A stretch of 64,000 nt of DNA from Rubritepida flocculans DSM 14296. GTDB lineage: Bacteria; Pseudomonadota; Alphaproteobacteria; Acetobacterales; Acetobacteraceae. The notes below the pieces were generated by a model. The model worked only from the letters and a program-made list of their open reading frames with translations, searched no databases and was not told the origin of the DNA. The stretch spans positions 1 through 64,000 of the forward strand of contig NZ_AUDH01000014.1 of NCBI RefSeq assembly GCF_000425365.1. Reading direction: 5' to 3'. Positions 21,695 through 51,380 of this stretch are shown here, one piece after another; the first letter of the stretch is position 1; every line of letters starts with the position of its first letter. The translations under genes were made by a program, and so were the position numbers.

Positions 21695-21701
21695 TCCGCC
21701 T

Positions 21702-21829
21702 CATGCCAGCGGCCGCTGATCTCGACTCCTTAAAAGTCCGTGCGGCCGCTGGTATGCCTTTGTTTCGGCGCGCAGCCGCCACACCAACCCTGCGCGCGAT
21801 ACGCTCGGCTTGTCATGCCGACCGTATCA
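21702..21829 (+). repeat. Double-palindrome repeat, copy A (128 bp)
   Basis: This is one of three related copies in the window. It has an inverted repeat around NotI-like GCGGCCGC cores (CCAGCGGCCGCTG ... GCGGCCGCTGG), a GC-rich middle, and a right palindrome ending GCCGACCGTATCA. It is about 87% identical by eye to copy B over equal length. It lies between the sirtuin stop and the protease signal peptide, with the frame open through it. Its last base begins the ATG used by the protease. Confidence 0.85.
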
Positions 21830-22602
21830 TGCCCTCGGCCGCTCGCCGTGACGCGGGCGAAAGCGGCCGCTGGCGTCATGCCGCGCTGATCGTCGCGCTG
21901 CTGCTGCTGGCCGCCGGCCCGGCGCTCGCCCAGGGCAAGCCCGGCGCGCCCCCGCCCGCCCCGGCCCTGCCCGGCATCGGCTCGGAGGACCCGCGCCGCG
22001 TGGTGAGCCCGCGCGAGATGCCCTGGGCGGCGCTCGGCCGGGTGGTGACGGGGCTGGGCAGCCGCTGCACCGGCACCCTCATCGCGCCCGACCAGGTGCT
22101 GACGGCCGCGCATTGCCTCGTCGCGCCCGGCAGCCTCGCCTTCGCCCACCCGCACGCGGTCCTCTTCCTGCTCGGCTATGAGCGAGGGGCCTTCCGGGCG
22201 CGGGCGCGCGTCGCCCATTACCGCATGGGCCTGGGCTACGATCCGGTGAGCGGCGGCCCGGCGCGCGAGGACTGGGCCATCCTCACCCTCGAAACCCCCC
22301 TGCCAGGGCCCTTCCTGCCCCTGCTCGATCGCCCGCCCCCGCCGCGCAGCCCCCTCATGCTTGGCGGCTACCAGGCCGATGCGCCCGAGGTGCTGCAGGC
22401 GGACCTGGACTGCCGACTCCTCGAGGCGCGCGACGGCGTGCTGCTGCACGATTGCGCGGGCACGCGCGGCGCCTCGGGCGGGCCAGTCCTCACCCGCACC
22501 CGGGACGGCTGGGCCGTGGCCGGCGTCGCCTCCCGCGTCGCCCGCGACCTCGCCCTCGGCGCCGCCGCATCCATCGAGGCGGTGCAGGAGGCACTCCGGT
22601 AG
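21829..22602 (+). CDS. Secreted trypsin-like serine peptidase
   Basis: The 257-residue S1 protease has a signal peptide (hydrophobic residues 18-34, ending ALAQ), a Pro-rich linker, and the triad His95 (LTAAHC), Asp148 (REDWAIL) and Ser216 (GASGGPV). Paired Cys include Cys80/Cys96. The frame is open back to ATG 21691, which overlaps the sirtuin stop as ATGA, but that would place 46 repeat-encoded residues ahead of the signal peptide. ATG 21829, at the repeat edge, is therefore preferred. Confidence 0.88.
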   Translation: MPSAARRDAGESGRWRHAALIVALLLLAAGPALAQGKPGAPPPAPALPGIGSEDPRRVVSPREMPWAALGRVVTGLGSRCTGTLIAPDQVLTAAHCLVAPGSLAFAHPHAVLFLLGYERGAFRARARVAHYRMGLGYDPVSGGPAREDWAILTLETPLPGPFLPLLDRPPPPRSPLMLGGYQADAPEVLQADLDCRLLEARDGVLLHDCAGTRGASGGPVLTRTRDGWAVAGVASRVARDLALGAAASIEAVQEALR

Positions 22603-22605
22603 CGA

Positions 22606-22874
22606 GGCGAGAACCGGGAAGGGCGTTGCTGGAGAGGGGCGCCGCCCCTCTCCAGACCTCACCCCGCCAGGAGGCTGTAGCCTCCTGGACCTCGGGCATC
22701 AGTCGGGCTTGGGGGGAGGGGCCGACGCGAGCGTTTGGCCCGGCGGTTCCGCCGGCCCCTCCCCCCGAGCCCGACACGGTTCCGGGTTCCAAGGGGCCAC
22801 TGCCCCTTGGCGGGATGGGGTGCGGGGAAGGGCAGCGCCCTTCCCCGGGGGCGCGCCCCTTCCCGGCTCTCGCC
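22606..22874. repeat. Multi-hairpin intergenic element closed by an outer inverted repeat
   Basis: Outer arms 22606-22625 and 22854-22874 are near-perfect complements (one mismatch, one bulge). Inside are four strong hairpins: 22629-22655 (13-bp arms), 22667-22688 (10), 22704-22773 (21-bp arms with one mismatch, containing a small inner hairpin at 22741-22754) and 22789-22810 (9). A fifth lies at 22824-22846 (10). The arms begin 3-5 bases beyond the stops of the two convergent flanking genes. No coding frame is visible. Confidence 0.88.
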
Positions 22875-22878
22875 TTTG

Positions 22879-23277
22879 CTACTGGTCTTCCTCCTGTTCC
22901 AGCCGCGCGATGTCGGCGTCGGAGAGGCCGAAGTGGTGGGCGATTTCGTGGATCAGCACGTTGCGGACGAGGCGGAACAGGTCTTCGCCCGTCTCGATCC
23001 ATTCGAGGAGGATGGGTTCGCGGTAGAGCAGGATGGTGTCCGGCTCGCCGGGGGTGTCGGCGAGGGATTTGCGGGTCAGCGGCGTGCCGCGGTAGAGCCC
23101 CGTCAGTTCCCAGGGGCTTTCCAGCTCCATTTCGGCCACCGTTTCGTCATCGGGGATCTCCTCGACGACGATGGCCGCCCCGCGCACCATCTCGCGCAGC
23201 TCGCGGGGGATGGCGGCGAGCGCATCCTCCGCCATCTCCAGTATGTCCTCGAGGCTCGGGGGCGTGGTCGGGCGCAT
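22879..23277 (-). CDS. Zinicin-like metallopeptidase family protein
   Basis: The 132-residue protein has the minimal zinc-metalloprotease motif [11 protein letters not shown] near its C-terminus (His110, Glu111, His114, Asp120). It matches the small family of possible zinc peptidases formerly DUF1025. An acidic N-terminal half ([15 protein letters not shown]) and [11 protein letters not shown] are typical. Substrates are unknown. The start at 23277 is 27 bases from the divergent PCD gene. Confidence 0.9.
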
Positions 23278-23304
23278 GGTGCGTCATCGCATGGGGAGGG
23301 CCGG

Positions 23305-23592
23305 ATGGTCGAGAAGCTGGACGAGGCGGCGCGGGCCGCGCTGCCGGAGCTGTTGCCGGAATGGCGCGTGCTGGAGGGGCGGGACGCGATCCAGCGCGCC
23401 TTCCGCTTCCGCGATTTCAACGCCGCCTGGGGCTTCATGGCGCGCGTCGCCCTGCTGGCCGAGCGGCAGGACCACCACCCCGAGTGGTTCAACGTCTACA
23501 ACCGCGTCGAGATCACGCTGACCACGCATGACGCAGGCGGGCTCTCGGCGCGCGACGTGGCGCTCGCCCGCGCCATCGACGCGCTTGTCTGA
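23305..23592 (+). CDS. phhB: 4a-hydroxytetrahydrobiopterin dehydratase (PCD)
   Basis: The 95-residue pterin-4a-carbinolamine dehydratase has the active-site segment [12 protein letters not shown] (His57, His58) and later [11 protein letters not shown]. It recycles the pterin cofactor of phenylalanine hydroxylase, or acts in pterin metabolism generally. ATG 23305 follows GGGGAGGG. The end overlaps the downstream MmcB start by eight bases. Confidence 0.94.
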
Positions 23593-24061
23593 CACGCCCC
23601 TCGGCGCGCGGGCGCGCACCGAGGCCATCACCCGCGCGGTGCTGCGCTGGTGTCTCGCCCAGGGCTGGGCGCCGCTCGCCGAGGTGCCGCTGCCCGACGG
23701 GCGGCGGGCGGATGTGCTGGCGATTCGCGCCGATGGCGGGCTCGTGATCATCGAGGTGAAGTCCGGCGCGCGGGACTATCTGAGCGACGCGAAATGGGGC
23801 GACTACGCCGCCTGGTGCGACGCCTTCCTCTTCGCCGTGGACCTCGACTTCCCCGAGGCGCTGCTGCCCGCCGAGCCGGGGCTGCTGGTGGTGGCCGGGC
23901 GCGAGGCGGCGCTGCGCCGCGCTCCGCCCGAGGCGGCGCTGGCGCCCGCGCGGCGGCGGGCGCTCACGCTGCGCCTCGCCCGGCTCGCCGCCACCCGGCT
24001 CGCCGAGGCCGCGGACCCCGAGGGCGCGGCGGAGCGGCGGGCGGCGTTGCGCCTCGCCTGA
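23585..24061 (+). CDS. mmcB: MmcB family DNA repair protein
   Basis: The 158-residue protein has a PD-(D/E)XK nuclease-like core: [22 protein letters not shown] followed by [21 protein letters not shown]. This matches MmcB, a mutagenesis-linked protein of alphaproteobacteria. The only start near the domain is TTG 23585 (eight-base overlap with the PCD gene). An ATG at 23528 would add residues with no family similarity and a 65-base overlap. Confidence 0.88.
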
Positions 24062-24082
24062 GGCGCGGCCATAAGCCCCGCC

Positions 24083-25012
24083 ATGGCCCATCTCGCGCGG
24101 CTCGCCGCCGGCTTCATTCCCTTCACGCCCTACCCCTATCGCGGCCGGCACGAGCCCTGCGCGCTGTGCGGCGGGGCGGAGACGCTGCCGCTCTCCGCGC
24201 ATGACCGGCGCCTCAAGCGCCTCGGCACCGTGATCTGCGCCGGCTGCGGGCTGATCCGCACCGACCCGATGCCGACGGAGGAGGAGCTGGCCGAGTATTA
24301 CCGCCACCACTACCGGATGGATTACCAGCTCGTCGGCACGAAGCCGCCGCGGCGGCACCTGGTCCGCACCCGGGCGGAGGCGGCGCGGCGCGTGGCGCTG
24401 CTCGCCCCCGTGCTGGGGCCGGGGGCGCGGGTGCTCGACTACGGCTCGGGCTCGGGCGAGTTCCTGCAGGCCGGCGCGGCGGCCGGCTGGGCCATGGAGG
24501 GGGTGGAGCCGGGCGAGGCCTATGCCGCCCATGCGCGGCGCCTCGGCGTCACCGTCCATGCCGCCCTGCCCGAGGGGGCGGGGCCCTATGACGCCATCAC
24601 CTCGCACCATGTGTTCGAGCATCTGCGCGATCCGCTCGCGGTGCTGCGGCGGCTCGCGGCGGTGCTGAAGCCCGGGGGGGTGCTCTACCTCTCCGTGCCC
24701 GACATGGGCCCCAATCCGCGCCCCGCCTTCGACCGGCTGCACTTCGCCCATGTGCACGGCTTCGTGCCCGAGACGCTGGACCTTCTGGCCGCGGGCGCCG
24801 GGCTCGCGCCCGATCCGCGCTTTCCGCGCGAGCGCACCACCTGCGTCTATCGCCCCGCCGAGGTGGCCTTCCGCCCGGACCCGACGCTCGCCCCGCGCGT
24901 GCGCGCGGGCTTCCGCATGGTGGACCCGATCCGGCATGTGCTCACCCTCGGCTGGCTCGCGCCCGGCCTCCGCCGCCTCTCGCGCGATCTGCGCGACAGC
25001 TTCCGCCGCTGA
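24083..25012 (+). CDS. Class I SAM-dependent methyltransferase with N-terminal zinc ribbon
   Basis: In this 309-residue protein an N-terminal four-Cys ribbon (Cys26, 29, 52, 55) precedes a Rossmann methyltransferase with SAM motif VLDYGSGSGEFL and SHHVFEHLRDPLAVL. This architecture is common in sugar C-methyltransferases and in uncharacterised methyltransferases of polysaccharide clusters. No such cluster is adjacent, so the substrate is open. Confidence 0.85.
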   Translation: MAHLARLAAGFIPFTPYPYRGRHEPCALCGGAETLPLSAHDRRLKRLGTVICAGCGLIRTDPMPTEEELAEYYRHHYRMDYQLVGTKPPRRHLVRTRAEAARRVALLAPVLGPGARVLDYGSGSGEFLQAGAAAGWAMEGVEPGEAYAAHARRLGVTVHAALPEGAGPYDAITSHHVFEHLRDPLAVLRRLAAVLKPGGVLYLSVPDMGPNPRPAFDRLHFAHVHGFVPETLDLLAAGAGLAPDPRFPRERTTCVYRPAEVAFRPDPTLAPRVRAGFRMVDPIRHVLTLGWLAPGLRRLSRDLRDSFRR

Positions 25013-25073
25013 CTTGCGCAGCCGCGCGGGGCCGTGCCAGCGTCGCGCCGGTGAGGGACGAAAGGCGTTCGGC

Positions 25074-25394
25074 ATGAAGCGGATGGCGCTGCTGGGGCTG
25101 CTGGTGCTGCTGGCGAGCCCGGCGGCGGGGCAGGGCCCCGCGCCGGTGCTGATCGGCGAGGGGCAGCGCCTCGCGCACCAGTGGTGCGCCAACTGCCACG
25201 CCGTGGCGCCCGGCCAGCGCCCGCCCGCCGGGGATGCGGCGGCGAGCTTCCCCGCCATCGCCGCGCTGCCCTCCACCACCGAGGCCTCCCTGCGCGTCTT
25301 CCTCCAGACGCCGCACGCCGGCATGCCCGACTACCGGCTGAGCCGGACGGAGATGGACGCGCTGGTGTCCTACATCCTCTCGCTGCGCCGCTAG
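25074..25394 (+). CDS. Small secreted c-type cytochrome
   Basis: The 106-residue class I cytochrome c has a signal peptide (residues 1-19), haem motif CANCH (38-42) and a probable axial Met84 in HAGMPDY, followed by the usual C-terminal helix ALVSYILSLRR. It is periplasmic and could shuttle electrons to an oxidase or dehydrogenase; no partner gene is adjacent. Confidence 0.92.
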   Translation: MKRMALLGLLVLLASPAAGQGPAPVLIGEGQRLAHQWCANCHAVAPGQRPPAGDAAASFPAIAALPSTTEASLRVFLQTPHAGMPDYRLSRTEMDALVSYILSLRR

Positions 25395-25395
25395 G

Positions 25396-25484
25396 GCGGT
25401 TTCCAGACGACCGGGAACCGCTCTCGCCGAGTCGTTCCGAGCAGCTCGGCGCCATGGCCGATTGCAGCCATGGGCGATCTGCTC
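25396..25484. other. Two hairpins between cytochrome c and amidohydrolase genes
   Basis: A stem 25396-25404/25412-25420 (8 of 9 pairs) lies just after the cytochrome stop. It is followed by a nested hairpin 25439-25484 (GAGCAG...CTGCTC outside, CGCCATGGC...GCCATGGGCG inside). There is no T-run; they may protect the upstream mRNA 3' end or regulate the next gene. Nothing else is seen up to 25528. Confidence 0.45.
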
Positions 25485-25528
25485 CGGGGGGCTCGCCACC
25501 CCCGCCCCGCCGGGTGCATGGTGGGGGC

Positions 25529-26947
25529 ATGCAGAACAGCGAACCCATCTGGCGCCTGGTGGACGAGAAGGCGCAGCCGGCCATCGAGCTGTCCGACCGC
25601 GTCTGGGGCATGCCCGAACTCGCCTATGCCGAGACGCGCTCCGCCGCCGAGCACACGCAGTATCTCGAGCGCGAGGGCTTCCGCGTCACGCAGAACCTCG
25701 CCGGCATCCCGACCGCGATGATGGGCGAGGCGGGCGAGGGCGGGCCCGTCATCGCCATACTGGGCGAGTTCGACGCGCTGCCCGGCCTCTCCAACGAGGC
25801 CGGGGTGGCCGAGCCCCGGCCCATCCCCGGCGATGGCAACGGCCATGGCTGCGGCCACAACCTGCTCGGCGCGGGCTCGCTGCTCGCCGCCACGGCGCTG
25901 AAGGAATGGCTGAAGGCGGAGGGCATCCAGGCGCGCGTGCGCTACTACGGCTGCCCGGCCGAGGAGGGCGGGGCGGCCAAGGGCTTCATGGCCCGTGCGG
26001 GCCTGTTCGACGACGTGGATGTCGCGATCTCCTGGCACCCCTCGGCCTTCGCCGGCGTGAACGAGCCGCTGAGCCTCGCCAACACGCGCATCGACTTCAC
26101 CTTCACCGGCCGCGCGAGCCATGCGGCGGCGAGCCCGCATCTGGGGCGCAGCGCGCTCGACGCGGTGGAGCTGATGAGCGTGGGCGTGAACTACCTGCGC
26201 GAGCACATCCCGCAGGAGAGCCGCATCCACTACGCCTATCTCGACGCCGGCGGGGTGGCGCCCAACGTGGTGCAGGCGCGCGCGAAGGTGCGCTACCTGA
26301 TCCGCGCCGCGGATGTGACGGCGCTCAACGCCCTGGTGCCGCGCGTGCGCGACATCGCGCAGGGGGCCGCGCTGATGACGGGCACGCGCGTGGAGGCGCG
26401 GGTGATCTCGGCCGTCTCCAACCTGCTCGGCAACAGCGTGCTGGAGCGGACGATGCAGGACAATCTCGACCGCCTCGGCCCGCCCCCCTTCGACGCCGAG
26501 GACCGGCGCATCGCCGCCCGGTTCCAGGCCACGCTCTCGGAGGAGGAGATCGCCAGCGCCTTCCGCAAGATGGGGCTGCCGCGCGACGACTCGCCGCTGA
26601 CGCAGCGCGTGGTGCCGCTCGAGAGCAGGCGCGCGCCGATGATCGGCAGCACCGATGTGGGCGATGTGAGCTGGGTGGTCCCCACCGTGCAGGCGCGGGG
26701 CGCGACGCACGCCATCGGCACGCCTCTGCATTCCTGGCAGGCCACGGCGCAGGGCAAGCTGCCCTACGCGCACAAGGGCATGGTGCATGTGGCGAAGGTG
26801 ATGGCCGGCACGGCGGTGGACCTGCTGCGCCGGCCCGAGCTGATCGCCGCCGCGAAGGCCGAGCACCGCGAGCGCAGCGGCGGCAGATACGTCTGCCCGC
26901 TGCCCGAGGACGCCACGCCGCCCATCGGCATGTCGCTCGCCGTGTGA
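25529..26947 (+). CDS. M20 amidohydrolase, AbgB-like
   Basis: The 472-residue enzyme is of the p-aminobenzoyl-glutamate hydrolase B / indole-acetyl-amino-acid hydrolase group. It has a metal centre around GNGHGCGHNLLGAGS, PAEEGGAAKG with the catalytic Glu, the ISWHPS loop, dimerisation segment GRASHAAASPHLG, and a C-terminal HSWQATAQGKLPYAHKGM. It cleaves an amide to an aromatic or amino acid; the substrate is not known. Its TGA stop is the first triplet of repeat copy B. Confidence 0.9.
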   Translation: MQNSEPIWRLVDEKAQPAIELSDRVWGMPELAYAETRSAAEHTQYLEREGFRVTQNLAGIPTAMMGEAGEGGPVIAILGEFDALPGLSNEAGVAEPRPIPGDGNGHGCGHNLLGAGSLLAATALKEWLKAEGIQARVRYYGCPAEEGGAAKGFMARAGLFDDVDVAISWHPSAFAGVNEPLSLANTRIDFTFTGRASHAAASPHLGRSALDAVELMSVGVNYLREHIPQESRIHYAYLDAGGVAPNVVQARAKVRYLIRAADVTALNALVPRVRDIAQGAALMTGTRVEARVISAVSNLLGNSVLERTMQDNLDRLGPPPFDAEDRRIAARFQATLSEEEIASAFRKMGLPRDDSPLTQRVVPLESRRAPMIGSTDVGDVSWVVPTVQARGATHAIGTPLHSWQATAQGKLPYAHKGMVHVAKVMAGTAVDLLRRPELIAAAKAEHRERSGGRYVCPLPEDATPPIGMSLAV

Positions 26948-27072
26948 TACGGTCGGCATGGCATGCCGACCGTATCGCGCGCAGGGTTGGCGTGGCGGCT
27001 GCGCGCCAAAGCAAGCTCATGCCAGCGGCCGCTCCGCCTTCTCAGGAGTCGAAATCAGCGGCCGCTGGTATG
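26945..27072 (-). repeat. Double-palindrome repeat, copy B (128 bp, inverted orientation)
   Basis: It has the same architecture and length as copy A but reversed: the palindrome GATACGGTCGGCATG/GCATGCCGACCGTATC (26946-26976) comes first and the GCGGCCGC inverted repeat last. It begins at the TGA that stops the amidohydrolase and ends 19 bases before the stop of the convergent histidine phosphatase. Confidence 0.88.
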
Positions 27073-27091
27073 AGAGGCGCGGCGGGGCGGC

Positions 27092-27733
27092 CTACTGGCA
27101 GCCGTGGAAGCCGCCGTCCGGGAAGGGCGCGAACTCCACCACGCCGAGCAGGCTGCCCTGCGCCCCGCCCGGGGCGATGACCAGCGCCGCGCCTTCGGGG
27201 AAGGCGCGCCCGGCCACCGCATCGCCGAACACCATGATGCCCGGCGTGCGGTGGCCCACCAGCACGCGGTTCACCCCCGCGGGCACGGGGGCGGCGAAGA
27301 GGCGGCGGTGCTCGGCCAGCACCCGGTCGAGCCGCGGGCCCGCGTAGTCGTCGGCCAGCAGGCTCTCGGTCACCACCACATTCGCCGCGCCGAAGGCGAT
27401 CTCCGCCGTGTCGCGCGCGCGATAGACGGGGCCGGCCAGCACCGGGAGCTGCACGGGAATGCCGAGCGCGCGCATCCGCGCCGCGATGGCGGCCGACTGC
27501 TCCCGCCCGCGCGGGGAGAGGTTGCGCTGCCCCGCGCGGTCGCCCAGGCGGTAGCTGCGGTCGCAGGGCTCGCCCAGCGTGTCGGCGTGGCGGAAGAACA
27601 GCACGAGGCCGCCCGCGCGCAGCCGGGGCAGAAGGCCCGAGGCCTCGACATCCACGGGCGCCAGGCGTTGCGCCCGGGCGGGGGCGGCGAGCAGCAGGGC
27701 GGGAAGCGCCCGCCGAGGGAGGGAGTGGCGCAT
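27092..27733 (-). CDS. Secreted histidine phosphatase family protein
   Basis: The 213-residue protein has a signal-like N-terminus (about 1-21) and the phosphohistidine motif FFRHADT (Arg48, His49). ARDTAEIAFG, the second His in VLVGHRTPGI and EGAALVI follow, matching branch 1/2 histidine phosphatases of periplasmic type. The substrate is unknown. The gene is convergent with the amidohydrolase across repeat B. Confidence 0.88.
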   Translation of the reverse strand: MRHSLPRRALPALLLAAPARAQRLAPVDVEASGLLPRLRAGGLVLFFRHADTLGEPCDRSYRLGDRAGQRNLSPRGREQSAAIAARMRALGIPVQLPVLAGPVYRARDTAEIAFGAANVVVTESLLADDYAGPRLDRVLAEHRRLFAAPVPAGVNRVLVGHRTPGIMVFGDAVAGRAFPEGAALVIAPGGAQGSLLGVVEFAPFPDGGFHGCQ

Positions 27734-27827
27734 GGGGCGGGGAGTGGGCCGCCCCGGAGGAATGTCAAGCCTCGCGCCGGGCGCATCGGGGGTGGACGGG
27801 CCCGCAGGCGCCGCCGCCCCCCAGCGC

Positions 27828-32471: not shown

Positions 32472-32637
32472 GTCGACCCCGTGCGGATGTTTCGGGCGTC
32501 ATGACCTATCCATGCGCCGCCCGGCGGTCGTTGCAGCAACCCTTAAGCTTCGATGAAGAGTCCTTGAAAAGATGCGGTTATTTCTGCCTGAAACCTGGGC
32601 AGCGACATCCTGCTGCCCCCGGCTGGTCAAGCTTTCG
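32472..32637 (-). promoter_or_regulatory. AT-richer upstream region of the RTX nucleotidase gene
   Basis: These 166 bases separate the Nudix stop from the RTX gene start. The middle (about 32535-32595) is much more AT-rich than the rest of the window, as expected for a promoter. A stem GGGCAGC/GCTGCCC (32597-32618) may end the Nudix transcript. No hexamer pair could be assigned with confidence. Confidence 0.4.
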
Positions 32638-33078
32638 TCATGCCGAGGCCATGCGGCGGCCCGATGCAGCGGCGGCGATCACCTCCTGCGCCTCCCGCGT
32701 CAGGCCGAAGGGCGCGAGCGCCGACAGCCCCGCCCAGGCCACCGCCGAGACATCGTCGCCCGGCGCCGCCTCGCCCGCCAGCCATTCGGCCGCGTAGTCC
32801 ACGATGGTGTAGTGGAAGCGCAGCGCCCCCTCCGCGTCATGGGTGAGGGAATCCACCACCGCGACGAGGCGGAGCGGGCCCACCTCCACCCCCGTCTCCT
32901 CGCGCAGTTCCCGGCGGGCGGCCTCCTCGGCACGCTCGCCCAGGCGCTGCGCGCCGCCGGGCAGCGACCAGGCGCCCAGCCGCGGCGGCCTGCCCCGGCG
33001 CACCAGCAGCACCTCCTCGCCGCGGAACACCACCACGCCGATGCCGATCCAGGGCCGGTCGGGGTATTCGCGGCTCAT
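32638..33078 (-). CDS. Nudix hydrolase
   Basis: The 146-residue protein has a complete Nudix box: Gly42-x5-Glu48-x7-Arg56-Glu57-Leu-Arg-Glu60-Glu61-x-Gly63. The short N-terminus WIGIGVVVFRG and LGAWSLPGG are typical of ADP-ribose pyrophosphatase or MutT-like housekeeping enzymes. It overlaps the DUF4340 gene by ATGA and is the last gene of the ABC operon, though functionally it is probably separate. Confidence 0.93.
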   Translation of the reverse strand: MSREYPDRPWIGIGVVVFRGEEVLLVRRGRPPRLGAWSLPGGAQRLGERAEEAARRELREETGVEVGPLRLVAVVDSLTHDAEGALRFHYTIVDYAAEWLAGEAAPGDDVSAVAWAGLSALAPFGLTREAQEVIAAAASGRRMASA

Positions 33079-37433: not shown

Positions 37434-37491
37434 CTCACACCCCCGGTGAATCGCGGCGCCCGGTTTACCGTCCGCGCCCCGGTTTTCAAGG

Positions 37492-39886: not shown

Positions 39887-43314
<3,428 letters not shown>

Positions 43315-44622
43315 GGGGCCCCCACACCCCCGGCCGCACCGCCACCGCCGCCAGCACGCCATAGGCGGTGATGCCGAGCGCCACGGCCAGGAACTGCCCC
43401 GCCATGCCGAGGCCCAGCGCATCGCCGAGCAGCCAGCCCCCGCCCACCGCGATCAACAGCCGCGACAGCCCCGCCGCCACCGGCCAGCCCATCCGCCCCG
43501 CGCCCATCGCCGCGAAATACATCGCCATGCCGAGGCCGAAGCCGCCGAAGGCCGGCCCCACATAGGAGAGCGCCTGCGCGGCGATGGCCGCCACCTCCGC
43601 ATCCGAGGCGAAGAGCCGGGCGAAGAACAGCGGAAACACCGCCACCGTCGCGCCGATGGCGCTGCACAGCGCGAAGGCCATGCCCCCGCCCACCCAGGCG
43701 GTGCGCCGCGCCGTCTCCCAGTCGCCCTGGCCCACCGCGCGGCCGACCAGCGCCGTCAGGGCCGAGCCCACGCCGAAGGCGAGCGGGATCATCATGAACT
43801 CGAGCCGCGCGGAGACGCCATAGGCCGCCACCGCCGCCGCGCCATGGGCCGCGAGCCGCGCGGTGACGAGGATGGTGGCGAGATTCGCCACCAGCGCCAG
43901 CGTGCAGGCCACCGCGCCCACGGCCAGGATGCGCCGGAAGAGCTCCCAGCGCAGCCGCAGTGTCAGCGCGGGCACGAAGCCCGCCGCCCCCGAGAACACC
44001 ACCCGCGCCATCACCGCCGCCGCCGCCCAGAAGCACAGCGCGAAGCCGAGCCCGAGGCCCACGAGGCCGAGGCCGAGCGTCTCGGCCAGCAGGAAGCCCA
44101 GCGCCGGATAGGCCATCCAGGCCAGGTTCAGCACCCGCGCCGCCAGCCCGTGCCGCCCCGCCCCGCGCAGGATGGAGGCCAGCGTGTTCGCCGCCCAGGC
44201 GGGAACGGCGCCGAGCCCGAACAGCGTCATGGCGTAGGGCGCGCCCGCCGCCGCCGCCACCGGCCCGCCGATCCAGCCCAGCAGCGCGAAGGGGAAGAGC
44301 GCGAGCGGGACGATGAACAGCAGCGCGAAGCCGAGCGCGATGAGCAGCGCGTGCAGCGCGAGCGCCGCCGCCTCCTCCGGCCGCTGCGCCCCCAGCGCGC
44401 GCGAGATCGCGCCCACCACCCCGCCGCCCATCGCGCCTGCCGACATCTGCCCGAGCAGCAGCGCGAAGGGCAGCACCACCGCCCAGCCCGCCAGCGCCTC
44501 GCGCCCCAGCCGCGCGGCGATCCAGGTCTCGATCAGCAGCGCGGCCACCTGCAGCGCCGAGAGCAGCGTGGTGGGCGCGGCGAGGGCGAGGATGCGGCGC
44601 GCCAGCTCGCCGGCCGAGGGCC

Positions 44623-45873
44623 TCACGCGAAGCGCCCGATGGAAAAGGGCGAGAGATCCGTGTTCGGCGCGGGCCCCAGCATCGCGCGCGCCAGCAGCGC
44701 CCCCGTGGGCGCGGAGGCGGTGAGGCCGAGATGCCCGTGCCCGAAGGCGCACCACAGCCCGGGATGGTTCGGCACGGGGCCGAGCACGGGCAGCGTGTCG
44801 GGCAGGCAGGGGCGATGGCCCATCCAGAAGGGCCGCGCATCGGCGGTGCGCGCCTGCGGATAGACCATGCGCAGATCCTCGAGCAGCAGCGCGGCGCGGG
44901 CGGGGTTCGGGGCGCGCTCGGTGCCGCCGAACTCCACCGTGCCGCCCACGCGCAGCCCCTCCTCCATGGGCGTGAGGAAGGCCTTGCGGTCGGCCGGCAC
45001 GACGGGCCGGCGCGGCATCACGCCCGGATCGGGCAGCATGACGTGATAGCCGCGCTGGCTCTCCAGCGGCACGCGCAGGCCGAGCGGCGCGAGCAGCCTG
45101 GCCGACCAGGCGCCGGCCGCCAGCACCACCTCATCGGCGAGGATCGCCTCGCCCTCCGCGCGCACGCCGATGACGCGCGGCCCCTCGGCGAGCAGTGCCT
45201 CCACCCGCGCGCGGCGGATCGCGCCCCCCATGCGCGCGACGCCGCGCGCCACCACCCGCGCATGGCGCAGCGGGTTCACGCAATGTCCCTGGCGCGGGAG
45301 GAAGACGCCGATGCTGTAGGCCGCGCTCACCTCCGGCTCCAGCGCGAGCACGCCCGCGCGGTCCAGCACCTGCATCTCGAGGCCGTGCGCGCGGCGCAGC
45401 GCCCAGGCGGCCTCGTCCTTCGCCAGGTGCGCCTCGTCCCGGTAGAGGTAGAGCTGGCCTTCGTCGCGGATGAGGTCGAGCGCACCCTCGGCGCGCAGGA
45501 TGTCGCGGTGCCGCTCCTCCGCGCCCGCGAGGAGCTGCGCCATGCCGTCCGCGATCTCGCGCACGCGCGCGGGCCGCGCGCTGAGCACGAAGCGCCACAG
45601 CCAGGGCAGGGCGGCGGGCCAGTAGGGCGCGGGGATGTGCAGCGCCGCCTTGCGGTCGAGCAGCATGCGCGGCACCTGCGCGAGCACGCCGGGCATGGCG
45701 AGCGGCGCGACGCTGCCCGCCGAGATCGCGCCCGCATTGCCCGAGGAGGCGCCCTCGCCCGGGCCGTCGCGGTCCAGCACCGTCACCGCCGCGCCGTCGC
45801 GCTGCAGGAACCAGGCGACGCAGAGGCCGACGATGCCGGCGCCGACGACGATCACGCGGGGCGGGTTGGGCAT
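44623..45873 (-). CDS. FAD-dependent D-amino-acid dehydrogenase-like oxidoreductase (DadA family)
   Basis: The 416-residue DAO-fold enzyme has the N-terminal FAD motif GAGIVGL (11-17) with Asp-Arg after strand 2 (LDRDGPGEGASSGNAGAI). GYHVMLPDPG and the C-terminal GHRPCLPDTLPVLG and GHGHLGLT are typical of DadA, which oxidises D-amino acids to 2-oxo acids. The start ATG 45873 is 58 bases from the divergent dehydrogenase gene. The exact substrate is unknown. Confidence 0.9.
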   Translation of the reverse strand: MPNPPRVIVVGAGIVGLCVAWFLQRDGAAVTVLDRDGPGEGASSGNAGAISAGSVAPLAMPGVLAQVPRMLLDRKAALHIPAPYWPAALPWLWRFVLSARPARVREIADGMAQLLAGAEERHRDILRAEGALDLIRDEGQLYLYRDEAHLAKDEAAWALRRAHGLEMQVLDRAGVLALEPEVSAAYSIGVFLPRQGHCVNPLRHARVVARGVARMGGAIRRARVEALLAEGPRVIGVRAEGEAILADEVVLAAGAWSARLLAPLGLRVPLESQRGYHVMLPDPGVMPRRPVVPADRKAFLTPMEEGLRVGGTVEFGGTERAPNPARAALLLEDLRMVYPQARTADARPFWMGHRPCLPDTLPVLGPVPNHPGLWCAFGHGHLGLTASAPTGALLARAMLGPAPNTDLSPFSIGRFA

Positions 45874-45931
45874 CGGGCGATGCTCGCGCATCATGCGCGC
45901 GCCGTCCATGCGCCCCTTCGGAGGAAACGCC

Positions 45932-47023
45932 ATGCTCCACGCCACCGTCGATTCCGTGCGCGCGCAGATCGCGGCCATCCTCGCCGCCTGGGGCGCGCCG
46001 CCGCACCTCGCCGAGACCACGGCCGAGGTGATGGCCGAGACGGACCTGATGGGCGTGGACAGCCACGGCATCTCGATGCTGACCATGTACGAGGAGATCC
46101 ATCGCGCCGGCGTGCTGCGCCTCGCGGGGGAGCCCTTCCTGCGGCGCGACTATGCCGCCACCGCGCTGGTGGATGGCGCGGACGGGCTCGGTCATCCGGC
46201 GGCGATGATGGCGATGAAGCTCGCCATCGAGAAGGCGCGCGCCTTCGGCATCGGCGCGGTGGGCGTGGTGAACAGCCACCATTTCGGCGCGGCCGGCTGC
46301 TACGCGCGCATGGCCGCCGCGGCGGGGCTGATGGGTCTCGTCACCTCCACCGCGCGCGGCGTGATCCTCGTGCCGACGCGCGCGGCCGAGCCGGTGCTCG
46401 GCACCAACCCCATCGCCTTCGCCGCCCCGGTGCCCGGCGCGCCGCCCATGGTGCTCGACATGGCGACGACGACGGTGGCGGCGAACAAGGTGAAGGCCTA
46501 CCACCTGAGGGAGAAGGATCTGCCGCCCGGCTGGGTGGTGGACGGCGCGGGCCGCCCCGTCACCGCCCATGCGGAGGCGATGGAGTTCGTCTTCCGCCGG
46601 CGCGAGGGGGGAATCACGCCGCTCGGCGGCGGCGAGGAGACGGGCGGGCACAAGGGCTATGGCCTCGCGCTCATGGTGCAGATGCTGGCGGGCGCGCTGG
46701 TGGGCGGCAGCTTCTCGGCCCTGCGCGCCCGCACGGCGCGGCCCGGCCAGCCGCACAACATCGGCCATCTGATGATCGCGCTCGACCCGCGCGCCTTCCG
46801 CGACCTGGCCGACTACGAGGCCGATGCGGCGGCGACCCTCGCCCTGCTGCGCGAGACGCCGCCGGCCGATCCGGCCCTGCCCGTGCTCGCGCCCGGCGAT
46901 CCGGAGGAGGCGGCGCGCGCCGAGCGGCTTTCGGGCGGCATCCCCATCCCCGAGGCGCTGGAGCGGGAGCTCCGCGAGATCGCGGCGCGCGCGGGCGCGC
47001 CCTTCCTGCTGCGGGCGGCCTGA
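45932..47023 (+). CDS. Malate/L-lactate dehydrogenase family oxidoreductase (Ldh type 2)
   Basis: The 363-residue NAD(P)-dependent enzyme of the MDH2/YbiC/DlgD fold has ETDLMGVDSHGISML with the catalytic His, GVVNSHHFGAAGCYARMAA, LGTNPIAFAAP, and PHNIGHLMIALDP. It reduces 2-oxo acids (malate, lactate, ureidoglycolate or similar). ATG 45932 has GGAGG eight bases upstream. It is divergent from the DadA-like gene, suggesting linked oxo-acid metabolism. Confidence 0.93.
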   Translation: MLHATVDSVRAQIAAILAAWGAPPHLAETTAEVMAETDLMGVDSHGISMLTMYEEIHRAGVLRLAGEPFLRRDYAATALVDGADGLGHPAAMMAMKLAIEKARAFGIGAVGVVNSHHFGAAGCYARMAAAAGLMGLVTSTARGVILVPTRAAEPVLGTNPIAFAAPVPGAPPMVLDMATTTVAANKVKAYHLREKDLPPGWVVDGAGRPVTAHAEAMEFVFRRREGGITPLGGGEETGGHKGYGLALMVQMLAGALVGGSFSALRARTARPGQPHNIGHLMIALDPRAFRDLADYEADAAATLALLRETPPADPALPVLAPGDPEEAARAERLSGGIPIPEALERELREIAARAGAPFLLRAA

Positions 47024-47032
47024 TGGCGGCGC

Positions 47033-47428
47033 TCAGCCCGCCCGCGTCTCGGTGCGGAAGGCCTTGCTCACGATGCGCCAGCCCTCGGCGGTCTTGAGCA
47101 GTAGCAGATAGTCGGTGAACCAGCGCGGCGGCAGGCAGCAGGCCAGCTTCACGCAGGCCGCCTCCTCGCCCGCGAGGTCGATCGCGAGGATGCGGTCCTC
47201 GCGCACCAGGCCCTGGGACTGCGCGGAGGGCCGCGCGCGCACCGCCGCGAGCCATTCCTCGCGCGGCAGATCGGCCACCTCGCCCGCGCTGAGGCTGTAG
47301 AGATGCGCGCAGGGATGGAAGGCGCGCGCGAGCTTCTCCGCATCGCCCTCGTGCAGCCCGTCGAGGTAGAGGCGCACCACCGCCTCGATGGCGGCGAGCT
47401 CGGGCAGGGTGGGGGGCGCTTCGGGCAT
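47033..47428 (-). CDS. NTF2-like protein (lumazine-binding-like family)
   Basis: This 131-residue cone-fold protein has a helical start (AIEAVVRLYLDGLHEGDAEKL), AFHPCAHLYS, and a beta sheet ending WRIVSKAFRTE. These match SnoaL/Lumazine_bd_2 proteins, which bind small ligands or act as isomerases. ATG 47428 shares TGATG with the stop of the nucleotide-sugar dehydrogenase upstream; an adjacent GTG (47431) is possible. Function unknown. Confidence 0.8.
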   Translation of the reverse strand: MPEAPPTLPELAAIEAVVRLYLDGLHEGDAEKLARAFHPCAHLYSLSAGEVADLPREEWLAAVRARPSAQSQGLVREDRILAIDLAGEEAACVKLACCLPPRWFTDYLLLLKTAEGWRIVSKAFRTETRAG

Positions 47429-48639
47429 CACTCGGTCTCCTCGTCGCGGAACAGGCCGCGCGTGTCGATCACGGCGCGGCCCTCGAGCCAGGCGCGCGGG
47501 ATGCGCGCGAAGGCGGCATGGTCGGTCAGCAGCAGCACGGCGCCCGGTGCGGCGAAGGCCTGCTCCAGGGTGAGGAGCGGCGCGGCGAGCCCCTCGGGGG
47601 GCGCGGCGAGGTGCGGCTCCACCGCCACCACCTGCCCCGGGAAGCGGCGCGCGAGTGCCGTGGCGATGGCCAGCGCGGGGCTTTCGCGTAGATCATCCAC
47701 ATCCGCCTTGAAGGCGAGGCCGAGGCAGATCAGCCGCTCGCCCGCCTCGGCCAGCGCGGCGGCGCGGGCGATGACATGCGCGCGCTTCGCCGCGTCCACC
47801 GCCCGCGCGGCGGGGATGAGGCGCGCGGCCTCGGGTGCGGCGGCGGCGAGGAACCAGGGGTCCACCGCGATGCAATGCCCGCCCACCCCGGGCCCGGGCC
47901 TGAGGATGTTCACCCGCGGGTGGCGGTTGGCCAGCGCGATGACGCGCCAGACGTCGATGCCCTGCGCCTCGGCGATGAGCGAGAGCTCGTTGGCGAAGGC
48001 GATGTTCACGTCGCGGAAGGCGTTCTCGGCGAGCTTGACCATCTCCGCCGTCGCCGCATCCGCGCCCAGCACAGCGCCGCGCACGAAGAGGCGGTAGAAG
48101 TCCACCGCCCGGCGCGTCGCCTCGGGCGTGAGGCCGCCGGCCACGCGGTCGTTCTCGGTCAGCTCGGTCAGGATGCGGCCGGGCAGCACGCGCTCGGGGC
48201 CATAGGCGACGTGCAGCGCCGAGAGATCGGGCCGCAGCGCGCCGAGCAGCGCCGCCACGCGCGCGGTGGCGCCGATGGGGCTCGTGCTCTCGAGCAGCAC
48301 CAGGTTCTCCTCCGCCAGCGCGGGGGCGAGGGCGCGCGCGGCGGCGAAGACATGCTCGAGCACCGGCGCGTGGTCCGGCCCGAGCGGCGTGGGCACGGCG
48401 ATGAGGAACACCTCCGCCGGGGGCGGCTCGGCGTGCAGGGTGAGCAGGCCCGTGCGCAGCCCGCGCTCCAGCAGCGCCTCCACCTCCGGCTCGGCGATGT
48501 GCGCGCGGCCGGAGGCGAGCCGCGCCAGCACGGCGGGGTTGCTGTCCACCCCCTGCACGCGGAAGCCCCGGCTGGCGAGCAGCGCGGCGGTGGGCAGGCC
48601 GATGTAGCCGAGGCCGAGGATGGTGACGCGCGGGAGCAT
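47428..48639 (-). CDS. wecC: Nucleotide-sugar dehydrogenase, probable UDP-N-acetyl-D-mannosamine dehydrogenase
   Basis: This 403-residue NAD-dependent four-electron dehydrogenase starts with ILGLGYIGLPTAALLASRG. STSPIGATARV, the catalytic Cys motif GPGVGGHCIAVDPWFL and LGLAFKADVDDLRESPA follow. GGHCIAVDPWF is typical of the WecC group, making UDP-ManNAc uronate for surface polysaccharide. No other polysaccharide genes are nearby, so it is isolated. It is divergent from the Bug gene at 48715. Confidence 0.9.
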   Translation of the reverse strand: MLPRVTILGLGYIGLPTAALLASRGFRVQGVDSNPAVLARLASGRAHIAEPEVEALLERGLRTGLLTLHAEPPPAEVFLIAVPTPLGPDHAPVLEHVFAAARALAPALAEENLVLLESTSPIGATARVAALLGALRPDLSALHVAYGPERVLPGRILTELTENDRVAGGLTPEATRRAVDFYRLFVRGAVLGADAATAEMVKLAENAFRDVNIAFANELSLIAEAQGIDVWRVIALANRHPRVNILRPGPGVGGHCIAVDPWFLAAAAPEAARLIPAARAVDAAKRAHVIARAAALAEAGERLICLGLAFKADVDDLRESPALAIATALARRFPGQVVAVEPHLAAPPEGLAAPLLTLEQAFAAPGAVLLLTDHAAFARIPRAWLEGRAVIDTRGLFRDEETE

Positions 48640-48714
48640 GGCCCATCCTGCCATGGCCGCAGGGCTTCCGCACCCGCGCGCGCCGCGCCACAAAGGCGAT
48701 GGAGGAAGAACGCC

Positions 48715-49698
48715 ATGACCCAGCGCCGCGCCCTGCTCGCCCTGCCTGCCCTGTGGCCTGCCCTGCAGCCCGCGCTCTCGCCCGCGCCGGCCGCGGCGCA
48801 GCCCGCCTGGCCGCAGCGGCCCGTGCGCCTCGTCGTGCCCTATGCGGCCGGCGGCGGCACGGACATCCTGGCCCGCGCCCTGGCCGAGGCGCTGCGCCCC
48901 GCCCTGCCGCAGCCCGTGGTGGTGGAGAACCGCGCGGGCGCCGCGGGCGTGATCGGCAGCGAGATGGTGATGCGCGCCGAGCCCGACGGGCAGACGCTGC
49001 TCATGGTCGTCTCCACCCATGTGATGAACCGCCACGTGATGGCGCAGCTTCCCTTCGACCCCATCCGCGACTTCACGCCGGTGGCGATGCTCACGCGCAA
49101 CACCATGGTGCTGGCGGCCAGCGCGGCGCTGCCCTTCACCGATCTGCGAGGCATGGCCGCTTATGCGCGCGCCAACCCCGCGCGGCTTTCCACCGGCAGC
49201 ACCGAGGCGCTCTCGAGCTTCCTCGGCCAGGAACTCGCGCGGCGGCTCGGCATCGAGACGCCCGACGTGCAGTACCGCTCCGGCGGGCAGCTCATGACCG
49301 ACATCGTGGCCGGGCACCTGCCCATGGGCTGGACCAGCACGGCGAGCGTCACGCCGCACATGGGCACGGGGCGGGTGCGGGTGATCGCCGTCTCCACCGC
49401 CACGCGCACGCCCTTCTTCCCCGATGTGCCGAGCGCGCAGGAGCAGGGGGTGGCGGAGTTCGACCTGGCGGGCTGGGTCGGCCTCTTCGCGCCGCCGCGC
49501 ATGGCCGAGCCGCTCGCCGCGCGCATCCGCGAGGCCTTCATGGGCGCCTTCCGCGACGAGGCGCTGCGCCAGCGCCTCGCCACGCTCGGCATCGAGCCCG
49601 ATCTGCGCGACGGGGCGGGGCTGCTCGCCGCCATGCAGCGCGAGGACCGTCTCTGGGCCGCGGCCGCCGCCGCCGGCCACATCCAGCGCCAGCAATAG
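48715..49698 (+). CDS. Bug-family (TctC) binding protein
   Basis: The 327-residue periplasmic binding protein has a signal peptide (ending PAAAQ near 28), RPVRLVVPYAAGGGTDILA, VVVENRAGAAGVIGSE, LPFDPIRDFTPVA and DVPSAQEQGV, all Bug-family landmarks. ATG 48715 follows GGAGGAA. It precedes a PEP-mutase/ICL-family enzyme by nine bases, so its ligand may be a carboxylate handled by that enzyme. No TctA/B is present. Confidence 0.93.
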   Translation: MTQRRALLALPALWPALQPALSPAPAAAQPAWPQRPVRLVVPYAAGGGTDILARALAEALRPALPQPVVVENRAGAAGVIGSEMVMRAEPDGQTLLMVVSTHVMNRHVMAQLPFDPIRDFTPVAMLTRNTMVLAASAALPFTDLRGMAAYARANPARLSTGSTEALSSFLGQELARRLGIETPDVQYRSGGQLMTDIVAGHLPMGWTSTASVTPHMGTGRVRVIAVSTATRTPFFPDVPSAQEQGVAEFDLAGWVGLFAPPRMAEPLAARIREAFMGAFRDEALRQRLATLGIEPDLRDGAGLLAAMQREDRLWAAAAAAGHIQRQQ

Positions 49699-49707
49699 GA
49701 ACACGTC

Positions 49708-50580
49708 ATGGCCAATCCCGCCCTCAAGGCCGCCTTCGCGGCCAGGCGCTTCATCGTCGCCCCCGGCGTCTTCGACATGATCAGCGCGAAGATCGCCGAC
49801 GGCATGGGCTTCGACTGCCTCTACGGCACGGGCTTCGGCACGGTCGCCTCGCATCTGGGCGTCGCGGATGCCGGCATCGCCACCTACACCGACATGGTGG
49901 CGCGCATGGGCCAGATGGCGCGCGGGGTGAGGACGCCCATGATCGCCGACGCCGATACGGGCTATGGCGGGCTGCTCAACGTGCGCCACACGGTGCAGGG
50001 CTACGAGGCGGCGGGGCTTTCGGGCATCCAGCTCGAGGACCAGGAGATGCCGAAGAAATGCGGCCACACCCCGGGCCGCCGCGTCATCCCCGCCGAGGAG
50101 ATGGTGCTCAAGATCCGCGTCGCCGCCGAGGCGCGGCGCGACCCCGACTTCCTCATCGTCGCACGCACCGATGCGCGCACCACCCTCGGCCTCGAGGAGG
50201 CGATCCGCCGCGGGCGGATGTACGGCGAGGCGGGGGCGGACATCGTCTTCATCGAAAGCCCCGAGAGCGAGGCGGAGATGGCCGAGATCGGCCGCAGCAT
50301 CGACAAGCCGCTGCTCGCCAACATGGTGGAGGGCGGGCGCACGCCCATCCTGCCCGCGAAGCGGCTGGAGGAGCTGGGCTACGCCATCGCCATCTATCCG
50401 GCGGTGGGCTTCCTCGCGGCGGCCGCGGCGCTGGAGCGCGCCTATGCGCACCTCAAGGCCGCGGGCGACAGCCTCGCGCTCGGCGAATCCTACGGCTTCC
50501 GGCGCATGACGGAGCTGATGGGCTTCCCCGAGGTCTGGGCCTTCGAATCGCGCTGGGCCGCGAAGGACGCCGCCGAATGA
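49708..50580 (+). CDS. Isocitrate lyase/PEP mutase family protein
   Basis: The 290-residue TIM-barrel enzyme has the Mg2+-binding ADADTGYGG, the gating loop EDQEMPKKCGH with the active Cys, and ARTDARTTLGL. FIESPES follows. The family includes methylisocitrate lyase, carboxyphosphonoenolpyruvate mutase, oxaloacetate decarboxylase and dimethylmalate lyase. KKCGH indicates a lyase rather than a phosphonate mutase. The product may enter central metabolism. The stop overlaps the dehalogenase start. Confidence 0.9.
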   Translation: MANPALKAAFAARRFIVAPGVFDMISAKIADGMGFDCLYGTGFGTVASHLGVADAGIATYTDMVARMGQMARGVRTPMIADADTGYGGLLNVRHTVQGYEAAGLSGIQLEDQEMPKKCGHTPGRRVIPAEEMVLKIRVAAEARRDPDFLIVARTDARTTLGLEEAIRRGRMYGEAGADIVFIESPESEAEMAEIGRSIDKPLLANMVEGGRTPILPAKRLEELGYAIAIYPAVGFLAAAAALERAYAHLKAAGDSLALGESYGFRRMTELMGFPEVWAFESRWAAKDAAE

Positions 50581-51293
50581 AGGAGGTCCAGGCTCTCGTC
50601 TTCGACGTGTTCGGCACGGTGGTGGACTGGCGCAGCGGCGTGGCGCGCTGGCTCGGCCCCTTCCTCGCCGCGCATGGCCGGGGCGATCTCGACCCCTTCG
50701 CGCTCGCCGACGCCTGGCGCCGGCGCTACCAGCCCGCGATGGAGGAGGTGCGCTCGGGCCGCCGCCCCTTCACGCGGCTCGACGTGCTGCACCGGGAAAA
50801 TCTCGAGCTGGTGCTGCGCGAGCACGGGATGGACCCCGGGCGCATGGCCGAGGCCGATCTCGATGATCTCAACCGCGCCTGGCACCGGCTCGACCCCTGG
50901 CCCGATGTGCTGCTCGGCCTGCACCGGTTGAAGCGGCGCTTCTTCATCGCGCCGCTCTCCAACGGCAACATCCTGCTGCTGGCGAACATGGCCAAGCGCG
51001 CCGGCCTGCCCTGGGACGCGATCCTGGGCGCGGAGCCCGTGCGGGCCTACAAGCCGCAGCCCGAGGCCTATCTGCGCACGGCGGACATCCTCGCCCTGCC
51101 GCCGGGGCGCCTCTGCCTCGTCGCCGCGCACAACGGGGATCTGGCGGCGGCCCGCGCCGCGGGGCTCGCCACCGCCTTCATCCCGCGCCCCACCGAGCAC
51201 GGGCCGGGGCAGAAGATCGACCTCGCGCCCGAACAGGCATGGGACTGGGTGGCGGAGGATTTCGTGGATCTCGCGGCGCAGCTCGGGGCGTGA
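50577..51293 (+). CDS. Type II haloacid dehalogenase-like hydrolase
   Basis: This 238-residue HAD-superfamily enzyme has nucleophile Asp10 in VFDVFGTVVDW, the Ser in APLSNGN, the Lys in VRAYKPQPEAY and the acidic motif AAHNGDLAAARAAG, all in the L-2-haloacid dehalogenase pattern. It hydrolyses a 2-haloacid or a phosphate ester. ATGA overlap with the lyase gene indicates coupling. Repeat copy C begins two bases after its stop. Confidence 0.9.
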   Translation: MKEVQALVFDVFGTVVDWRSGVARWLGPFLAAHGRGDLDPFALADAWRRRYQPAMEEVRSGRRPFTRLDVLHRENLELVLREHGMDPGRMAEADLDDLNRAWHRLDPWPDVLLGLHRLKRRFFIAPLSNGNILLLANMAKRAGLPWDAILGAEPVRAYKPQPEAYLRTADILALPPGRLCLVAAHNGDLAAARAAGLATAFIPRPTEHGPGQKIDLAPEQAWDWVAEDFVDLAAQLGA

Positions 51294-51294
51294 T

Positions 51295-51380
51295 CATGCC
51301 AGCGGTCGCCGGCATGGCTTTGTCCCGGCGCAGCGCCGCCCGGCGACACATACGGTCGGCATGCCATGCCGACCGTATCA
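51295..51380 (+). repeat. Double-palindrome repeat, copy C (86 bp, short form)
   Basis: It has a shortened left part (ATGCCAGCGG-TC-GCCGGCAT) and an intact right palindrome ATACGGTCGGCATG/CATGCCGACCGTAT that ends TCA. That terminal TCA is the stop codon, on the minus strand, of the phosphatase gene. It lies between two convergent genes. Confidence 0.85.

What the first reader, a model, noticed from the sequence alone, without database searches (positions are those of the whole stretch)
21702..51380. A dispersed family of double-palindrome repeats (three copies: 21702-21829, 26945-27072, 51295-51380)
Two 128-bp copies, about 87% identical by eye and in opposite orientation, and one 86-bp short form share an inverted repeat on GCGGCCGC cores and a right palindrome ending GCCGACCGTATCA. 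They are intergenic, lack coding potential and are not flanked by a transposase. This fits a REP/BIME- or MITE-like family that I do not recognise.
Basis: seen in the sequence. Interest (0 to 1): 0.7.

Follow-up and report, generated by a model that had tools for sequence, protein, structure and literature searches.

The report
Mobile hairpin element at stop codons
The three repeats are copies of a small three-hairpin DNA element, too short to carry a transposase gene, that has spread through the genome, often by inserting exactly at the stop codon of a gene and duplicating it, so that the gene keeps its end; its middle hairpin carries a loop sequence that recurs on its own in related bacteria.

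Summary
The window's genome (3.83 Mb, most likely Acetobacteraceae) holds roughly 100 copies, judged from 202 and 247 matches of the two palindrome arms. In its natural direction the element is palindrome A, a central hairpin, an A-rich spacer and palindrome B, about 123 bp, or about 160 bp with an extra hairpin inside the loop. It is mobile: flanking 3-bp triplets are equal in 51 of 61 parsed elements and in 12 of 13 young copies of genome G097 (TGA, TAA or TTA), and two of four sites tried gave clean empty sites in sister genomes. In the window's genome the triplet is the in-frame stop codon of the upstream gene in 36 of 51 parsed copies (about 32% expected), with one fixed direction in all 51; G097 shows this in only 2 of 12. 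Relatives keep the architecture with different arms. The central loop also occurs on other, covarying stems elsewhere in Alphaproteobacteria. No Rfam match, no RAYT in the own genome, no autonomous partner found in the part searched. Best reading: a non-autonomous, MITE-like element, perhaps moved by an IS5/IS1031-type enzyme (inferred); a new variant of a known kind.

The parts
21701..21703 (.). target-site duplication of copy 1 (B side)
   Evidence: TCA on + strand, equal to 21827-21829
21704..21826 (-). copy 1, 123 bp (A-to-B direction is the - strand)
   Evidence: 87% to copy 2 over 128 bases
21704..21754 (-). palindrome B of copy 1
21768..21797 (-). central hairpin of copy 1 (GCGCGC stem, loop AGGGTTGGTGTGGCGGCT)
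   Evidence: (41.6 bits to model R1)
21800..21826 (-). palindrome A of copy 1
21827..21829 (.). target-site duplication of copy 1 (A side); not an in-frame stop by codon score
26945..26947 (+). target-site duplication of copy 2 (A side) = in-frame stop codon TGA of the M20-peptidase gene ending at 26947
26948..27070 (+). copy 2, 123 bp
26948..26974 (+). palindrome A of copy 2
26977..27006 (+). central hairpin of copy 2
27020..27070 (+). palindrome B of copy 2
27071..27073 (.). target-site duplication of copy 2 (B side), TGA
51294..51296 (.). target-site duplication of copy 3 (B side), TCA on + strand
51297..51377 (-). copy 3, 81-bp short form (short palindrome B 51297-51314, decayed centre, intact palindrome A 51351-51377)
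51378..51380 (-). target-site duplication of copy 3 (A side) = stop codon TGA of the tyrosine-phosphatase-like gene 51378-52007 (-)

Best explanation
A non-autonomous, MITE-like mobile element of three hairpins that has multiplied to roughly 100 copies in this genome. SHOWN: it inserts as one unit with exact ends (TAC...GTA) and duplicates a 3-bp TNA target; relatives have different arms while the ends, the central hairpin and the order are kept; in the 51 parsed copies of the window's genome the triplet on the A side is TGA or TAA, never TCA or TTA (one truncated copy, not parsed, has TCA), and in 36 of them it is the stop codon of the upstream gene, which the duplication regenerates. INFERRED: a DDE transposase making 3-bp staggered cuts at TRA moves it in trans, perhaps of the IS5/IS1031 kind, whose members duplicate TNA; it may recognise the end hairpins, since the ends share only about 4-6 bp of inverted repeat. 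Insertions at stop codons are harmless and persist, and the three hairpins then open the 3' untranslated region of the mRNA.
For: 13 copies in genome G097 are 98-100% alike over at least 123 bases; their triplets are equal in 12 of 13: TGA 5, TAA 5, TTA 2; the odd one is CGA/TGA. Of 4 of these 13 sites searched in two genomes of the same genus, 2 gave a clean empty site, with a single TGA or TAA. 51 of 61 complete elements parsed from all loci then fetched have equal triplets. In the window's genome 49 of 51 parsed copies do, and 36 of 51 lie at the in-frame stop codon (binomial p 2.5e-8 against 43/133 from the window). Relatives keep the architecture with different arms. IS5-like elements with TNA duplications occur in G097 (TTA, TAA, TCA) and in G200 (TGA). 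PMC12016507 (passage read) says that the IS1031 group prefers TNA and makes 3-bp repeats.
Against: No element with TACC...GGTA ends and a gene was found among the loci examined (the one candidate is two separate copies 0.8 kb apart), and the IS5-like ends seen begin GAGCC or GAGGC. PF13359 gave nothing over its cut-off in 6 genomes. Of the other two sites tried for emptiness, one has a local indel and one aligned only in part. 10 of 61 parsed elements have unequal triplets. A truncated copy (L037/L109) has TCA on the A side. In G097 only 2 of 12 copies parsed were scored as lying at in-frame stops (codon model of another genome), so the stop-codon excess in the window's genome may be survival, not targeting. 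The copy 1 triplet is not scored as a stop codon.
Confidence: 0.75

Rival explanations
1. REP/BIME-type repeats spread by a RAYT (Y1) transposase, possibly one lost since.
For: Palindromic, intergenic, many copies; A and B palindromes also occur singly or in tandem.
Against: No Y1_Tnp hit in the window's genome even at E <= 10, while the same search rings in 10 of 14 control genomes; other carrier genomes were not tested for it. Target duplications of 3 bp. In PMC3733652 (abstract start, passages) REPs are 20-40 bp and tagged GTAG or CGTC; its CGTC repeats are missing from Acetobacteraceae.
Confidence: 0.07
2. A gene-end regulatory element (terminator or 3' mRNA stabiliser) kept by selection, its distribution reflecting function rather than mobility.
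For: Fixed direction, mostly after stop codons, in the window's genome; strong hairpins; the central hairpin also occurs on other stems, 96.9% of cells paired over 15 pairs in 34 sequences chosen for long stems.
Against: Young near-identical copies, empty sites and target duplications show mobility. No run of T directly follows the hairpins in the contexts read by eye. A function after insertion is not excluded and would add to the main reading.
Confidence: 0.12
3. A multicopy small-RNA gene family.
For: Conserved loop on a covarying stem, optional extra hairpin in the loop.
Against: No Rfam match at the gathering threshold in the window, and at E <= 1 only tRNA, RNase P and weak below-cut-off hits in 15 and 9 loci; arms differ between genera; the hairpin on other stems was read in either direction relative to genes (by eye). 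Transcription was not tested.
Confidence: 0.06

Closest known systems
MITEs of bacteria (RUP, NEMIS, ERIC, Nezha and others; list from PMC3733652, passage read; TA duplications of several of them recalled)
   Same: 70-300 bp, no transposase gene, many intergenic copies, strong secondary structure; target duplication and movement in trans.
   Different: Known ones have 15-30 bp terminal inverted repeats (same passage); here only about 4-6 bp match and each end is its own palindrome. The duplication is TNA, with fixed direction and stop-codon excess in the window's genome.
IS5 family, IS1031 group
   Same: Duplicates TNA (PMC12016507, passage); IS5-like elements with TNA duplications are present in two carrier genomes. 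Calling them IS1031-like is my inference from duplication and ends; no IS database was searched.
   Different: Their ends begin GAGCC or GAGGC; the element ends in TACC or TACG. No sequence link found.
Mycobacterial MIRUs
   Same: Short repeats that appear mobile and insert at translation signals with little effect on the genes (PMC12548453, passage read; sites with TGA recalled).
   Different: That passage puts MIRUs at start codons with an ORF inside coupled to the next gene; here the site is mostly a stop codon and the element consists of palindromes.
REP/BIME with RAYT
   Same: Dispersed intergenic palindromes, sometimes in tandem.
   Different: No RAYT match in the own genome, target duplications, different size and architecture.

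Membership tests
MITE (non-autonomous DNA transposon) | target-site duplication and empty sites | tested here: met
   12 of 13 G097 copies; 51 of 61 overall; 2 clean empty sites of 4 tried
MITE (non-autonomous DNA transposon) | small, too short for a transposase gene, many copies | tested here: met
   105-161 bp in 51 parsed copies; 202 and 247 arm matches
MITE (non-autonomous DNA transposon) | terminal inverted repeats of 15-30 bp shared with an autonomous IS | tested here: not met
   the two ends share only TAC(C/G) plus a few bases; no IS with such ends among the loci examined. Hence 'MITE-like'.
REP/BIME | RAYT (Y1 transposase) in the genome | tested here: not met
   PF01797, own genome only, 0 matches at E <= 10
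REP/BIME | no target duplication on insertion (recalled) | tested here: not met
   3-bp duplications
IS5/IS1031-derived element | 3-bp TNA duplication | tested here: met
   TGA, TAA and TTA pairs
IS5/IS1031-derived element | ends matching an IS5-like element of the genome | tested here: not met
   GAGCC.. or GAGGC.. versus TACC.. in those whose ends were found; others not resolved
IS5/IS1031-derived element | mobilised by that transposase | not testable with these tools
   needs a transposition assay
MIRU | insertion at a translation signal | tested here: inconclusive
   36 of 51 at in-frame stop codons in the window's genome, but 2 of 12 in G097
MIRU | internal ORF coupled to the next gene | not tested
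   not examined
Rfam RNA family | match to a curated covariance model | tested here: not met
   tRNA and RNase P of neighbouring genes, and weak hits below the gathering score

The most novel reading that the evidence does not exclude
A new kind of bacterial mobile element that recognises its ends by hairpin shape rather than sequence and actively targets translation stop codons in one fixed direction. Its central hairpin is a separate, wider nucleic-acid motif of Alphaproteobacteria (loop AGGGTTGGYGTGGCGGCT on a freely covarying stem, in the element sometimes split by a second hairpin) with a function of its own at gene ends, perhaps as a bound structure or a two-layer G-quadruplex.
Probability: 0.25. 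Interest if true: 0.75.

Novelty: new variant of a known kind. Interest (0 to 1): 0.6.

Why it matters
It shows a way for mobile DNA to multiply in a packed genome (92% coding in the window by a simple gene caller) without breaking genes: insertion at a stop codon with duplication of that codon. The arms differ between genera while the ends, the loop and the order stay, which makes hairpin recognition by the unknown enzyme directly testable. The central loop motif recurs on other stems in other families of the class and matched none of the 4227 Rfam models at the thresholds used.

Tried and rejected
REP/RAYT: no Y1 transposase match in the own genome; not sought in other carriers. Known RNA: Rfam, three searches. 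Autonomous partner: DDE_Tnp_1 gave 30 matches in G097, 17 in the own genome, 5 in G200 and 0 in G018. Ends were determined for two multicopy IS5-like elements of G097 and one of G200; scans for inverted repeats with TNA flanks in 9 and 15 (four of them again) loci left most transposase loci unresolved. A + strand scan of all fetched loci for TACC-ended units of 0.6-3 kb gave one candidate, which is two neighbouring copies in L132. An A-like palindrome beside an open frame with a DDE_Tnp_1 match (635 aa, listed as a 629-aa ORF; L233) was a degenerate solo palindrome. PF13359: nothing over cut-off in 6 genomes. A solo B end at L301: ORFs listed, not scanned. Plasmids, phages, viral contigs: 2, 1 and 1 records with a partial match to the central part. 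G-quadruplex: with the quadruplex option the short centre gains 0.6 kcal/mol, the short centre of subfamily II 4.0, and both long centres nothing; 7.5% of shuffled 14-mers have four GG runs; some loop variants lose a GG run. Kept as speculation. A TA duplication (IS630-like) was rejected because the two clean empty sites hold one TNA and not TNA-TA-TNA. The first copy number was an undercount: only 40 of 260 candidates were scored.

Papers: searches (9 of 10). Six 15-letter spellings of the loop core gave 0 papers; Roseomonas with 'repetitive extragenic palindromic' gave 0. 'Not in print' means only this. Passages were read of PMC3733652, PMC2680597 (nothing of use), PMC12548453 and PMC12016507; no paper was read whole.
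Full report
WHAT IS THERE. Aligning them and refining the ends gives 123, 123 and 81 bp, each flanked by an identical triplet. In the element's own direction (A to B) the order is palindrome A (TACGGTCGGCATG..CATGCCGACCGTA), TC, central hairpin (GCGCGC-AGGGTTGGYGTGGCGGCT-GCGCGC), an A-rich spacer, and palindrome B (TACCAGCGGCCGC..GCGGCCGCTGGTA). Copy 2 reads this way on the + strand, copies 1 and 3 on the - strand. Of 200 shuffles none folds as well as copies 1 and 2 on either strand, or copy 3 on the - strand; 1 of 200 does for copy 3 on the + strand.

HOW MANY. A BLAST-type search of the own genome lists 39 near full-length and 3 partial places by my count of its rows, but scored only 40 of 260 candidates. 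Pattern counts are whole: 202 matches of the A arm (up to 2 mismatches) and 247 of the B arm (up to 1), controls 0. A palindrome can match on both strands, so there are very roughly 100 to 120 of each; this is an estimate, and the listings of places were cut. The exact 18-base loop occurs 51 times. Part of the difference is a long form of about 160 bp in which the loop is split by an extra hairpin (about 37 bases; CCCATCGAAGC..GCTTCGATGGG), and a second subfamily with another centre. Of the 51 copies parsed, 15 are 158-161 bp, 35 are 122-124 bp and 1 is 105 bp; the long ones were fetched on purpose, so this is no frequency.

WHO CARRIES IT. Exact matches to the junction of A and the centre were found in 13 stretches of named genomes: Elioraea tepidiphila, Paracraurococcus sp. 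(7 stretches), a Roseococcus MAG, Roseicella aerolata and three other MAGs. G018 shares the own genome's genus, so the window is most likely from Acetobacteraceae. The exact loop is in 33 of 200 genomes of the family and 9 of 289 of a draw from the class, own genome included in both; the reversed control pattern rang once, in G279. A covariance model of the hairpin matched 3 of 299 genomes of a phylum draw, own included, with at most 21 candidates scored per genome.

IT MOVES. In G097, 13 copies are 98-100% alike, besides one full-length copy at 75% and partial ones that I did not count. Flanking triplets of the 13 are TGA/TGA 5, TAA/TAA 5, TTA/TTA 2 and CGA/TGA 1. A solo A palindrome has TGA/TTA. 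Ten sites were joined in silico, four were searched in two genomes of the same genus and aligned. Two gave clean empty sites: one TGA (copy L066) and one TAA (copy L139). One (L142) lies in a stretch with a local indel, and one (L231) aligned only in part. Over all loci then fetched, 182 loop contexts were found; 61 had both palindromes under my parser, and 51 of the 61 have equal triplets: 43 TGA, 6 TAA, 2 TTA. Unequal: L007, L020, L036, L039, L062, L071, L125, L130, L138, L152; some look like parse errors or decayed ends.

WHERE IT LANDS. In the own genome 51 copies were parsed: 47 TGA/TGA, 2 TAA/TAA, 1 TGA/TAA, 1 TGA/TGG. The parser demanded TNA on the A side, which dropped L020 (ATG), and an outer B end, which dropped the truncated copy L037/L109, whose A side is TCA. 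None of the 51 has TCA or TTA there. In 36 of 51 the triplet is the in-frame stop codon of the upstream gene by codon score. Window copies 1 and 2 are among the 51, copy 3 is not. In the window 43 TGA/TAA stops stand against 90 other intergenic TNA triplets, so about 32% is expected; p = 2.5e-8. Gene caller, codon model and baseline are simple ones from this one window. Over all genomes, of 41 elements with a clear coding signal on the A side 31 were in frame. Against this, in G097 only 2 of 12 parsed copies were (codon model from a genome of different composition), and G097 has two TTA copies. I read this as an intrinsic TRA target with fixed direction, to which survival at harmless sites adds the stop-codon excess. 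Active targeting is not excluded.

THE ARMS AND THE CENTRE. Elements of other genera keep TGATAC..GTATC, GCGCGC, the loop, and CATACC..GGTATGA with small changes, but their arms differ, for example CCGGTCAGCGA in G097, CGTGCCGCGG in G200 and CCGGCCTGCAG in Paracraurococcus. The loop also occurs on other stems. In 76 contexts without GCGCGC on both sides (a few of them variant elements), positions 1-13 beside the exact loop pair in 51-73 of 76 cases, against 28-45 expected from independent columns. Of the 41 with stems of at least 12 bp by a rule allowing one mismatch I aligned 34, leaving out near-duplicates: 96.9% of cells paired, covariation score 0.883 against 0.193 shuffled. Choosing long stems favours this number; the 76-case count does not suffer from it. 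Some lie beside tRNA genes and one beside the RNase P RNA gene (Rfam). Direction relative to genes was mixed where I read it by eye. Because the searches used the exact loop, its conservation is partly by construction; variants seen include AGGGTTGGGGTGGCGGCT, AGGGTTGCTGTGGCGGCT and AGAGTTGG forms.

WHICH ENZYME. A 3-bp TNA duplication is what the IS1031 group of IS5 makes (PMC12016507, passage read). IS5-like elements with such duplications are present in many near-identical copies in G097 (TTA, TAA and TCA; one of those checked has TTA/TAA), and in G200 (perfect 20-base repeats, TGA). The IS1031 label for them is my inference. Their ends (GAGCC.., GAGGC..) do not match TACC.., and no element with matching ends was found in the loci examined. 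I examined only part of each genome, so absence is not shown. There is no RAYT match in the own genome.

VERDICT. A real, sizeable family of MITE-like elements, unnamed within the searches listed, with two unusual traits: hairpin ends in place of long inverted repeats, and insertion in a fixed direction at TRA, in the window's genome mostly stop codons. It works like a MITE and resembles MIRUs in sparing genes, but long shared inverted repeats, a usual mark of MITEs, were not found.

Noticed in passing
L290, L288, L293, L285, L287 and others (G000): Long form: the central loop is split by an extra hairpin of about 37 bases; a second subfamily (L298, L302, L300) has a different hairpin at the same point.
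   Followed up: partly
L078, L079, L099, L103, L105, L114 (Rfam); L242, L243, L245 (by eye): The loop hairpin on other stems lies next to tRNA genes, and in three or four tandem copies just before an RNase P RNA gene (L105), mostly in genomes outside the window's family.
   Followed up: partly
L140, L145, L141, L224 (G097): A short palindromic repeat (AGAGCGCGATCGGTTTAAG..) is hit both by the element and by an IS5-like element, so both use the same kind of TNA site (by eye).
   Followed up: no
L116, L156, L181, L188, L194, L195, L091: Hairpins on other stems are often preceded by another G-run hairpin (like GGGGGTCTAAGGGGGGCT..GCCCCCCTT) (by eye).
   Followed up: no
window 21827-21873: A degenerate extra B-like palindrome directly beside copy 1 (75% match).
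   Followed up: no
L003, L013, L015, L016, L020, L286 (G000): Tandem elements, and single A palindromes joined to a B end through TGA, as if elements insert beside each other (by eye).
   Followed up: no
L160, L161 (G202), L191 (G000), L157, L164: Elements with two central hairpins in tandem, and elements lacking palindrome B (by eye).
   Followed up: no
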